Below the pieces are notes generated by a model, which was given only the letters and a program-made list of their open reading frames with translations, searched no databases and had not been told where the DNA came from. A stretch of 20,120 bases of DNA. It comes from Oribacterium sp. GTDB lineage: Bacteria; Bacillota_A; Clostridia; Lachnospirales; Lachnospiraceae. Both the position numbers and the translations under genes were made by a program. Below are positions 1,476 through 15,187 of this stretch, piece by piece. The stretch is taken from the NCBI GenBank assembly GCA_017940955.1, contig JAGAXP010000128.1, positions 1 through 20,120 on the forward strand, in the 5' to 3' direction. Each line of letters starts with the position of its first letter. Position 1 is the first letter of the stretch.

Positions 1476-1495
1476 AAATCATCGCTAACTTCACG

Positions 1496-1606
1496 TTTTC
1501 TTCTCTCATCCAGACTATACTGTCGGTACCGGAATCACACCGGTTCATGCACAAAGGCTCGCGGACTATACCGCCGGTAGGGAATCACACCCTGCCCCGA
1601 AGAACT
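1496..1606 (-). ncRNA. FMN riboswitch (RFN element) in the ribU leader
   Basis: The minus strand carries the conserved core in order: TTCTTCGGGGCAGGGTG, GATTCCCTACCGGCGGT, ATAGTCCGCGAGC, a variable arm, CCGGTACCGACAGTATAGTC and TGGATGAGAGAAGAA. P1 closes as TTCTTC with GAAGAA. These are the known signature blocks of the FMN aptamer. Both GGTGNNATTCC blocks read GTGTGATTCC, a small departure from the usual GTGAAATTCC. With ribU downstream and a U-tract hairpin between, FMN binding most likely promotes termination. Confidence 0.96.
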
Positions 1607-1624
1607 TATTTCAATTTCACCTAA

Positions 1625-4208: not shown

Positions 4209-4244
4209 CCGGGGACTGTTCTCATCGAAGAGAACCGTCCCCGG
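4209..4244. repeat. GGGGAC-type inverted repeat
   Basis: CCGGGGACTGTTCTC (4209-4223) faces GAGAACCGTCCCCGG (4230-4244) around a 6-base loop, with one mismatch in 15 positions. No U-tract follows on either strand. A shorter hairpin with GGGACTG arms lies at 16690-16707. Similar GGGAC(C/T)GT hairpins are scattered in intergenic DNA of many Clostridia; the family link is from memory and not tested. Confidence 0.6.
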
Positions 4245-5036: not shown

Positions 5037-5102
5037 TCCGCGATTTTGATTGCGTGAGCCATGCGGCTTTAAGCGGTTCAGGAGAATCCGTAGGGATCCT
5101 TT
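5037..5102 (-). repeat. Three-hairpin dispersed repeat, copy 1
   Basis: Positions 5056-5102 match the reverse complement of 13786-13832 at 39 of 47 bases without gaps; the shared core reads GCGGCTTT, then one base and AGCGGTTCA on the plus strand. The minus strand can form GGATCC/GGATTC (one G-U), AGCC/GGCT, and a third CGC..GCG hairpin at 5041-5054. These are the same three positions as in the copy at 13784-13863. It sits just past the stop of the minus-strand gene ending at 5121. No coding potential was seen. Confidence 0.65.
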
Positions 5103-5120
5103 CTGTGGCTGCCCGCTATT

Positions 5121-11415: not shown

Positions 11416-11647
11416 GGGTTAGCCCCGGCGGGCATCCCTTTTAAAACGGGTCGCTGCGGCGGAAAAATCTAAAATCTGGTCCCTAAGAGGCTCTAGACCC
11501 TCGCCAATGTCAGAGATTTTCTTTGATGACAACTCTGACTTGGCGAGGGGGCTAAGGAAAAGGGATCAAGAGCCTCTAAGGGACCAGATTTTGATTTTTC
11601 ACGTCCTCGCTCAACGTTTTAAAAGGGATGCCCGCCGGGGCTAACCC
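11416..11647. mobile_element. 232-bp near-perfect palindromic element (MITE-like), full copy
   Basis: The outer arms 11416-11448 and 11615-11647 are perfect 33-bp inverted repeats beginning GGGTTAGCCCCGGCGGGC. After an unmatched stretch of about 14 bases, inner arms at about 11463-11494 and 11569-11597 pair again with small indels, and central arms 11498-11515 and 11533-11549 pair with one bulge around a 17-base loop. Pairing stops exactly at the outer GGG/CCC. No ORF and no obvious target duplication. It lies 4 bases past the hflC stop. A related truncated copy at 13701-13917 shows it is a repeated unit. It may act as a terminator or RNA-processing site for the SPFH operon; mobility is inference. 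Confidence 0.75.
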
Positions 11648-11651
11648 TGGT

Positions 11652-12542
11652 TTATCGAAGGTCTGTACCGTATAGGATTTTTGCGAGTTCAGAATCTTTA
11701 TCGAGGATTATGGTTTTGTCGCCGCGACCTTTGAGGGAAGTCTTGAGGGCGTCGAGGGAGCGGATGTAGTTGTAGAATTCCGCCTTCTCAGTGGTGTTGT
11801 AGGCTTCGGCGAGGGTTTTCATGTACTCTGCTTCACCCTCTGCTTCGATGATGGCAGCCTGCTTCTTTGCCTCTGCTTCCATGATGGTTACCTGACGGTT
11901 GGTGTCGTTTCGGATCTTCTGGGCCTGGCTGTCACCCTGTGCTTTGTAGGAGGCAGCGATATTCTGGCGCTCGGAGATCATTCGCTCGTAAACGGCTTCC
12001 TTGTTGTCATCGGGGAGGTCGAGTGCCTTTATCTTAGCCTCGGTGATGGTAATGCCGTAGCCGCCGATGTCGGAATTGGAATCCTCTGTTATTAGCTTCG
12101 TAAGCTGCTCGCCTCTTGCAGCAATGACTTCGTCCTGAGACATTGAGGAAATTGTGTTCTTTGTGGCATTGTAAACTGCTACACCGACACGATCCTCTGC
12201 TGCTCTGGTGGAGGCATTGAGAGTCTGGGTGAACTTTACGGGATCTGTGACCTTCCATAAGATGAAGTCATCCGCAATCATGGACTTTTTGTCCTTTGTG
12301 ATGACATCTGAAGGCTGGATATCGTAAATCTGAAGGTCCTTTGGGATGTAACGGACGCTCTCCAGGAAAGGAAGCTTGGTGTAAAGACCGGCTTCGGTGC
12401 TTACCTTTGTGATCTTTCCAAGATGGGTTACAACACCGTATTCATTGGGATTTACAGTATAAAAGGCTGTACCGGACAGGAATAAAAAGCAAAGCAGTAT
12501 GACCACAAGGACAGCTCTTATTATGTTAAAGGTTTTCTTCAT
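11652..12542 (-). CDS. hflC: HflC-like SPFH/prohibitin-domain membrane protein, 296 aa
   Basis: HflC and HflK form a ring-shaped membrane complex that in other bacteria binds and modulates the FtsH protease. Here a single N-terminal membrane segment (residues 8-28) is followed by the SPFH domain, starting at VNPNEYGVVTHLGKI (30-44). The HflC-typical helical region RMISERQNIAASYKAQGDSQ follows, then an Ala/Glu-rich coiled coil (IMEAEAKKQAAIIEAEGEAE), the FYNYIRSLDALK motif and a short tail. The length fits HflC (about 300-330). The ATG overlaps the hflK stop by four bases (ATGA), a classic coupled pair. FtsH is not in the window. The palindrome at 11416-11647 follows the stop directly. Confidence 0.92.
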   Translation of the reverse strand: MKKTFNIIRAVLVVILLCFLFLSGTAFYTVNPNEYGVVTHLGKITKVSTEAGLYTKLPFLESVRYIPKDLQIYDIQPSDVITKDKKSMIADDFILWKVTDPVKFTQTLNASTRAAEDRVGVAVYNATKNTISSMSQDEVIAARGEQLTKLITEDSNSDIGGYGITITEAKIKALDLPDDNKEAVYERMISERQNIAASYKAQGDSQAQKIRNDTNRQVTIMEAEAKKQAAIIEAEGEAEYMKTLAEAYNTTEKAEFYNYIRSLDALKTSLKGRGDKTIILDKDSELAKILYGTDLR

Positions 12543-13657: not shown

Positions 13658-13700
13658 TTACTATGCTCCTTATAGGAATTTTAAAACTGTCCAGCCAGAG

Positions 13701-13917
13701 CCTGAGGGCATCCGTTTAGAAACGGGTCGCTCCGGCGGAAAAATCTATAACAGAACCCCTAAGAGGCTCTAGGCCCTCGCCAAAGAAAGAATCCTGACGG
13801 ATTCTTTTGAACCGCTCAAAGCCGCGCGGCTCCCAAGATTAAAAAACAAATCTTGGGCAGCAATGTCAGAGTTTTCTTTATGACAACTCTGACTTGGCGA
13901 GGGGGGCTAAGGAAAAT
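13701..13917. mobile_element. Truncated and interrupted second copy of the palindromic element
   Basis: The left part (13706-13783) matches 11431-11507: shared runs include AACGGGTCGCT, CGGCGGAAAAATCTA, CCCTAAGAGGCTCTA and CCCTCGCCAA. The centre (13864-13917) matches 11509-11562, including ACAACTCTGACTTGGCGAGG and GGCTAAGGAAAA. The right arm is missing: the homology stops one base before the stop codon of the stomatin-like gene. About 80 bases are inserted at 13784-13863. Confidence 0.75.
13784..13863 (+). repeat. Three-hairpin dispersed repeat, copy 2, nested in the palindromic element
   Basis: Compared with the full palindrome this is extra sequence, bounded by CAA on both sides (13781-13783 and 13861-13863), a possible 3-bp target duplication. 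It forms three hairpins: 13786-13794 with 13799-13807 (9 bp), the perfect palindrome AGCCGCGCGGCT at 13820-13831, and 13832-13840 with 13849-13857 (CCCAAGATT/AATCTTGGG). The relative at 5037-5102 shows this is an independent repeat. Confidence 0.7.
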
Positions 13918-15146: not shown

Positions 15147-15187
15147 AAGAAAATGCAAGGGCCGTCACACGTCCCTTGCATTTTCTT
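15147..15187 (-). terminator. First terminator downstream of gltX
   Basis: A perfect 15-bp stem (15147-15161 with 15173-15187, AAGAAAATGCAAGGG and its complement) with an 11-base loop. On the minus strand the stem ends in TTTTCTT and continues TCACATTTTC, a T-rich but interrupted tract. It lies about 30 bases past the gltX stop. Confidence 0.75.

What the first reader, a model, noticed from the sequence alone, without database searches (positions are those of the whole stretch)
11416..11647. A 232-bp near-perfect palindrome with perfect 33-bp ends between hflC and a helicase gene
The two outer 33-base arms match without error, pairing resumes through inner and central arms, and the boundary is sharp at GGGTTAG/CTAACCC. 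It has no ORF, no clear target duplication, and lies 4 bases after the hflC stop. As DNA it could be a non-autonomous mobile element; as RNA it would be a hairpin of more than 100 bases able to end or shape the SPFH transcript. The second copy in this window makes chance unlikely.
Basis: partly seen in the sequence, partly recalled or inferred. Interest (0 to 1): 0.7.

Follow-up and report, generated by a model that had tools for sequence, protein, structure and literature searches.

The report
Nested hairpin repeats in Oribacterium
The long DNA palindrome after the hflC gene is one of many related foldback repeats of about 220 bases scattered behind genes in Oribacterium bacteria; its two arms change sequence together while a fixed pattern of unpaired bases is kept, so the folded hairpin itself seems to matter.

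Summary
In detail: perfect 33-bp arms (chance maximum 14 bp in 200 simulated windows) and extreme folding (z -18). It is one copy of a dispersed Oribacterium family: 21 match rows at E<=0.001 in the nearest genome; matches in 10 of 17 congeners and 0 of 24 other genomes. Copies lie behind genes in either orientation and avoid divergent promoters (28 convergent, 7 divergent of 97 loci). The site is not conserved: all 8 readable hflC-helicase junctions of relatives lack the element, three keeping 11- or 23-nt end pieces. In 65 aligned copies, 66 of 77 stem pairs covary, almost always Watson-Crick (4,688 of 4,989 cells; G-U 108, A-C 69), so arm-to-arm DNA copying is likely. But the asymmetric core also shows a non-Watson-Crick switch, G.A to A.C or A.U (p 4e-17), which copying cannot make: a folded strand is probably selected. 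Relatives often carry other hairpins at such sites, and palindromes nest in one another. No transposase was found. Best reading: a new family of non-autonomous, REP/ERIC-like palindromic repeats that supply gene-end hairpins; mobility and termination are inferred.

The parts
11416..11647 (-). Large foldback repeat, copy W1 (minus strand taken as the reference strand)
11615..11647 (-). 5' outer arm, perfect 33 bp; its outermost 9 bases fall outside most family matches
11416..11448 (-). 3' outer arm, perfect 33 bp
11611..11614 (-). 5' side of conserved 4x4 internal loop (UUGA)
   Evidence: column 34 G/A covaries with column 211 A/C/U
11449..11452 (-). 3' side of the 4x4 internal loop (GACC)
11462..11600 (-). 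Core: A-tract, GC-rich stem, bulge, apical hairpin, GC-rich stem, U-tract (range of model R1)
11552..11566 (-). Conserved one-strand bulge AUCCCUUUUCCUUAG
   Evidence: the UUUUCCUU columns are 94-100% identical in 65 copies
11509..11539 (-). Apical hairpin
13693..13917 (-). Second copy W2, damaged: most of one half lost, foreign module inserted
   Evidence: intact ortholog in G012 (L090)
13779..13862 (-). 84-bp module of a second palindromic repeat family inserted in W2 (limits as used for the search)
   Evidence: matches in 10 of 17 Oribacterium genomes
5044..5109 (+). Degenerate stand-alone copy of the 84-bp module
   Evidence: (pair I2)
11652..12542 (-). hflC-like gene (SPFH/Band 7), upstream of W1
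   Evidence: PF01145
9535..11358 (-). UvrD-type helicase, downstream of W1
   Evidence: PF00580, PF13361

Best explanation
The palindrome is a copy of a genus-level family of non-autonomous foldback repeats (about 220 bp; about 280 bp in the few copies with a further outer arm). SHOWN: dispersed homologous copies; position behind genes; presence/absence between close relatives; end remnants; arms that change together; a conserved asymmetric core; nesting with two other palindromic repeat families. INFERRED: copies spread by an enzyme supplied in trans, probably acting on the folded single strand; hairpins are cut down or lost by deletion; arm symmetry is renewed by template switching or by replacement from another copy; in the cell the hairpin serves as a 3'-end structure or bidirectional terminator for hflC (and for genes on either strand elsewhere), the A-tract/GC stem/U-tract core giving a terminator-like upper hairpin on both strands.
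For: Copies: 21 rows at E<=0.001 in G001 (23 at E<=1, about 19 distinct places by my count); 10 of 41 genomes, all congeners, one of them (G009) by a 26-base match only. 65 full copies aligned. Covariation: 66 of 77 pairs; 612 both-sides cells against 129 in shuffles; 96.1% of cells paired against 32-50% when slid. DNA-level copying: Watson-Crick 4,688 of 4,989 cells, G-U 108 only somewhat above A-C 69; copies at the same site L008/L074 differ at 10 pairs on both sides and 0 on one side. Folded strand selected: column pair 34-211 is G.A in 39, A.C in 18, A.U in 5 of 65 copies. Gene context: 33 --, 29 ++, 28 convergent, 7 divergent of 97 loci (28 against 7, binomial p 0.0005). Turnover: hflC-helicase and 27 orthologous stretches with both flanks found, at 16 other sites, among them an A-tract/T-tract terminator in G014 where G001 has the element (L004 site).
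Against: No transposase, no target-site duplication, no clean pair proving insertion rather than deletion (the G001, G012 and G014 hflC remnants look like deletions of an older copy). L003/L070 are far more alike (3 of 77 pairs differ, 0 of 67 unpaired columns) than their flanks (88-93%), which selection or transfer could also give. The closer pairs L003/L070 and L006/L094 show only one-sided changes. The terminator scan does not flag the core and the U-tract is interrupted (UUUUAGAUUUUU). Some occupied sites keep an ordinary terminator next to the element (L005, L007).
Confidence: 0.67

Rival explanations
1. A functional structured RNA (cis-acting 3' UTR element or small RNA) that is not mobile as such; copies arose by duplication and are kept for the RNA's function, with the 4x4 tandem G.A-like loop and the UUUUCCUU bulge binding a protein.
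For: Conserved unpaired bases on one strand and non-Watson-Crick covariation, location after genes, slight G-U excess on that strand (108 against 69, p 0.004 without correction for relatedness).
Against: G-U pairs are only 2.2% of cells; no orientation bias to neighbouring co-directional genes (33 against 29); no relevant Rfam match; absent at the same site in close relatives.
Confidence: 0.25
2. A classical MITE derived from an insertion sequence whose DDE transposase recognises the ends.
For: Inverted ends, dispersed copies, presence/absence.
Against: Among the copies read, none was a longer element with the same ends and an ORF; no target duplication seen; the whole length, not only the ends, is palindromic; the G008 rows match only within positions 34-196, so there the ends have diverged more than the core.
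Confidence: 0.2
3. A REPIN mobilised by a REP-associated tyrosine transposase (RAYT, Y1).
For: Palindromic, behind genes, compensatory arms as described for REPINs (PMC3116915, passages); a different palindrome family (GGGGACGGTTCTC...) does flank a Y1 gene here (L228).
Against: Large element not found in the 30 of 46 Y1 matches held as loci; G011, G016 and G017 carry the element with 0 Y1_Tnp matches; no GTAG/CGTC tag seen by eye.
Confidence: 0.1
4. A fixed local terminator of the hflKC operon.
For: Position 4 bases after the hflC stop.
Against: Absent from the same junction in all 8 readable relatives, while about 19 places elsewhere in G001 hold relatives of it.
Confidence: 0.02

Closest known systems
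REP / BIME / REPIN
   Same: Intergenic palindromes, mostly between unidirectional and convergent genes (abstract of PMC3733652); compensatory changes in the hairpin and insertion of one into or next to another (PMC3116915 passages).
   Different: About 220 bp instead of 20-40 bp units; no RAYT association found; conserved asymmetric loops; no GTAG/CGTC tag seen.
ERIC and similar long imperfect palindromes
   Same: Long hairpin repeat, mostly intergenic, copy number varying by taxon, also found at gene 3' ends (PMC10969869 passages; hairpin nature recalled).
   Different: Sequence homology not tested; ERIC is about 127 bp (recalled) and found in Enterobacteriaceae and Vibrionaceae.
BOX / RUP / SPRITE of Streptococcus pneumoniae
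   Same: Repeats that insert into one another; SPRITE is terminator-like (PMC10969869 passages).
   Different: Sequence not compared; nesting here is palindrome within palindrome.
Template-switch maintained hairpins
   Same: Perfect stems and multibase compensatory changes made in one event (PMC8794818, abstract and opening text).
   Different: Described there for RNA genes; here a dispersed repeat.
IS elements targeting REP palindromes (e.g. ISRm22)
   Same: Insertion point at the palindromy axis (PMC1525189 passages).
   Different: The guest here is itself a palindrome without a gene.

Membership tests
REP/REPIN (RAYT-mobilised) | Dispersed extragenic palindrome | tested here: met
REP/REPIN (RAYT-mobilised) | Copies flank a Y1 transposase gene | tested here: not met
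   no match in 30 of 46 Y1 loci (the other 16 not read), one W1-derived query; 0 Y1 matches in G011, G016, G017
REP/REPIN (RAYT-mobilised) | GTAG or CGTC tag next to a 20-40 bp palindrome | tested here: not met
   size about 220 bp; no such conserved tag in alignment A1, read by eye
MITE | Short, non-coding, inverted ends, multicopy | tested here: met
MITE | Target-site duplication | tested here: inconclusive
   none noticed at W1 or the orthologous stretches, read by eye; flanks often replaced
MITE | Parent transposon with the same ends | tested here: inconclusive
   none among the copies read; genomes not searched exhaustively
Intrinsic terminator | GC-rich hairpin followed at once by a U-run | tested here: inconclusive
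   core has GC stem then UUUUAGAUUUUU; strict scan negative
Intrinsic terminator | Ends transcripts | not testable with these tools
   no RNA data
Known RNA family | Match to an Rfam model | tested here: not met
   gathering cut-offs, whole window; two matches on W1, mir-237 and SNORD38 at E 0.4, far below cut-off
ERIC | Sequence homology to ERIC | not tested
   resemblance recalled only

The most novel reading that the evidence does not exclude
A hairpin-tip element: a conserved asymmetric core that moves as a folded single strand into the tips of existing palindromes, so that its outer arms belong to the host palindrome or are copied onto both sides. Evidence not excluding it: one site with shared arms holds a short loop in G001 (L252), the core in G014 (L083) and, with only part of the arms, a RAYT-type palindrome in G012 (L251); large elements nested in shortened large elements (L002/L021, L003, L070, L095); a second genus (G181, G331) with a similar nested hairpin whose outer arms differ between copies yet stay palindromic.
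Probability: 0.2. Interest if true: 0.8.

Novelty: new variant of a known kind. Interest (0 to 1): 0.52.

Why it matters
It is a natural case in which massive base-pair covariation seems largely due to DNA-level arm copying, a warning for covariation-based RNA discovery, while a non-Watson-Crick pair separates selection on the fold from copying. If hairpin tips are landing sites, gene-end hairpins become a shared habitat for several mobile palindromes, and terminators could turn over by swapping tips.

Tried and rejected
Rfam: no relevant match. Phage records: no match. Y1 transposase link: found for another palindrome family, not for this one. Breadth with covariance model R1: 2 of 299 family genomes and 1 of 392 order genomes, but only the top 11 or 8 candidates per genome were scored, with stricter filters, so weak relatives may be missed. 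Exact 16-base pattern in genome contigs: 10 stretches, 7 from Oribacterium records, 3 from other MAGs not followed. Literature: 0 papers held Oribacterium with palindromic, repeat and intergenic; the 10 titles listed by each (of 4,461 and 1,739 papers) included none on such repeats in Lachnospiraceae. Fixed operon terminator: rejected.

Limits. The 65 full copies are what remained after 140 hits were reduced to 112 non-overlapping, non-identical ones; by genome 16 G014, 16 G012, 16 G017, 13 G001 and one each of window, G010, G015, G016. Partial hits and identical copies (for example L012, identical to L101) are not in A1. Not all matches were fetched (for example 12 of 19 G008 rows). Gene calls are longest-ORF guesses; some of the 97 loci are orthologs of each other or hold partial copies. 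The sites were chosen because no shared copy had been seen in my fetched set, so they over-represent sites lacking the element. The Fisher p value is not corrected for relatedness and counts one gap as not-A; the pattern occurs in G001, G012, G014 and G017 separately. In one search the pair L021/L071 (8 both-sided, 4 one-sided changes) is set aside because L021 is an inner, nested element and L071 probably matches the outer one; L006/L082 agree in one flank only. In one search L232 and L256 matched by one flank only; the palindrome in L232 lies upstream of the element's place, not at it, and is not counted. L178 and L180 are also not counted (contig end; one flank).

Full report
WHAT IS THERE. 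The window comes from an Oribacterium. Its own assembly is not held; the nearest genome, G001, shares 41% of sampled 31-mers and two of its contigs have the lengths of Oribacterium sp. NK2B42 records. The genes around the finding are three SPFH proteins and a UvrD-type helicase. The palindrome 11416-11647 is as described, with perfect 33-bp arms where simulated windows give at most 14, and it folds at -167.5 kcal/mol.

A FAMILY. BLASTN gives 23 match rows in G001 at E<=1, 21 at E<=0.001; leaving out second-strand, split and chance rows I count about 19 places. Among 41 genomes, 10 have matches, all in the same genus (10 of 17 congeners, G009 by 26 bases only; 0 of the other 24). 65 full copies were aligned. 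Covariance model R1 found the family in G001 and one match in another genus, G181, among 299 genomes of the family, and only in G001 among 392 of the order. G181 and one congener, G331, carry a similar nested hairpin of about 320 nt; its copies share a core while the outer arms differ from copy to copy and yet pair. Whether it is homologous or only alike is open: the model match is weak (E 3e-6).

ANATOMY. From outside in (minus strand of the window, family consensus): outer arm GAGCCGGAGGGCATCC...; a 4x4 loop UUGA/GACU; a short stem; A-tract GAAAAAUCAAAAUC opposite GAUUUUAGAUUUUUC; a GC-rich stem CCCCUUAG/CUUAGGGG; a one-sided bulge with UUUUCCUU (columns 94-100% identical); a stem CCCUCGCC/GGCGAGGG; and an apical hairpin. 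Some copies have a further outer arm like GTAACAGTTCAGCCGGGGC (L001, L009, L084, L085, L093, L099).

HOW THE ARMS EVOLVE. 66 of 77 pairs show changes on both sides, far above shuffled and slid controls. A normal reading would be selected RNA structure. Two facts argue that much of it is made at DNA level. G-U cells (108) only modestly exceed A-C cells (69) out of 4,989, whereas an RNA helix should tolerate G-U much better (general knowledge). And copies at the same site in two species differ mostly by whole pairs: L008/L074 10 pairs on both sides and none on one side; L006/L082 8 and 1; L080/L097 7 and 3; L010/L078 4 and 2. Against this, the two closest pairs, L003/L070 and L006/L094, show only one-sided changes (3 and 2). 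One-step template switching (PMC8794818, abstract and opening text seen) or replacement by another copy explains the whole-pair changes best. Yet the strongest covariation among unpaired columns is 34-211: G.A in 39 copies, A.C in 18, A.U in 5, and A.A, A.G and A-gap once each. These bases face each other in the 4x4 loop. Arm copying would turn such a mismatch into a complement, so this pair points to selection on a folded strand, RNA or single-stranded DNA.

WHERE COPIES LIE AND WHAT REPLACES THEM. Of 97 loci, 33 and 29 have co-directional neighbours in the two orientations, 28 convergent and 7 divergent ones. At hflC-helicase, of 11 genomes with an hflC match 8 have the helicase next to it: G001 keeps only the last 11 nt of the element (GGGGCTAACCC), G014 and, with one change, G012 keep the first 23 nt, and G017, G016, G011, G015 and G010 show nothing. 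At the W2 site G012 is intact, G014 and G001 lack the interior to different extents, the window copy has lost most of one half and gained an 84-bp module, and G017 has none. At 16 other occupied sites (one of them, L017, itself a partial copy) I read 27 orthologous stretches with both flanks found. The core is present in 2: L241, and L239 with the small module inside. By eye 12 carry another or a shortened hairpin: an A-tract/T-tract terminator (L179), hairpins of other sequence (L240, L242, L243, L247, L248, L251, L255), or outer arms only (L191, L245, L252, L253). L190, L244, L246 and L254 show end remnants; the other nine are not clear or show nothing (for example L234, L238, L249).

NESTING. 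Large elements sit inside shortened large elements (L002/L021, L003, L070, L095). The 84-bp module sits inside large elements, in the examples read at one place (window W2, L019, L088, L104, L105, L239) or close to a second (L087, L108, L135); orthologs of three lack it (L073, L098, L131). A RAYT-type palindrome that flanks a Y1 gene in L228 stands at the tip of palindromic arms in L251.

MECHANISM, SHOWN AND INFERRED. Shown: dispersal, turnover, nesting, concerted arms, conserved asymmetric core. Inferred: movement by an unknown enzyme, with hairpin tips as favoured sites; deletion as the usual end; use by the host as a gene-end hairpin, possibly a terminator in both directions. Insertion and internal deletion cannot be told apart at most sites.

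KNOWN KINDS. It works like REP/REPIN, ERIC or BOX-type repeats: extragenic, behind genes, palindromic, mutually inserting (PMC3733652 abstract; PMC3116915, PMC10969869 and PMC1525189 passages). It fails the RAYT criteria that could be tested. I file it as a new variant of the extragenic palindromic repeat kind, not as a member of a named family. Changes made on checking: remnant lengths, copy counts, the Y1 denominator, the number of orthologous stretches and one wrongly placed palindrome (L232) were corrected; confidence in the best explanation was lowered from 0.68 to 0.67.

Noticed in passing
window 13779-13862; also 5044-5109: 84-bp palindromic module, a second high-copy repeat family with matches in 10 of 17 Oribacterium genomes, found inside several large elements.
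   Followed up: partly
window 4209-4244; L228 508-543, 1279-1314, 2230-2265: RAYT-type palindrome GGGGACGGTTCTC...GAGAACCGTCCCC; in L228 three copies surround a Y1_Tnp gene. The window copy is 86% alike.
   Followed up: partly
window 15159-15186; L001 1362-1414; L232 151-241: Another roughly 45-base high-copy repeat (GAAAATGCAAGGGACGTG..GGCCCACGAGATTGAAA) that gave dozens of matches in G001, G012 and G014; nature unknown.
   Followed up: no
L232 250-306 (G014): 57-nt near-perfect palindrome AATAGGCGTGTCCG... beside that 45-base repeat.
   Followed up: no
L271, L274, L276, L277, L278, L279 (G181) and L272 (G331): Similar nested hairpins of about 320 nt in another genus, with copy-specific but pairing outer arms and a two-hairpin top.
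   Followed up: partly
L255 227-306 (G001): About 80-bp near-perfect palindrome GGTGGACCAGGGGGACGGGG... at the site where G014 has the large element.
   Followed up: no
window 1494-1608: FMN riboswitch (RF00050) on the minus strand.
   Followed up: no
L003/L070: Composite elements at the same site nearly identical although their flanks are only 88-93% alike: conversion, transfer or strong constraint.
   Followed up: no
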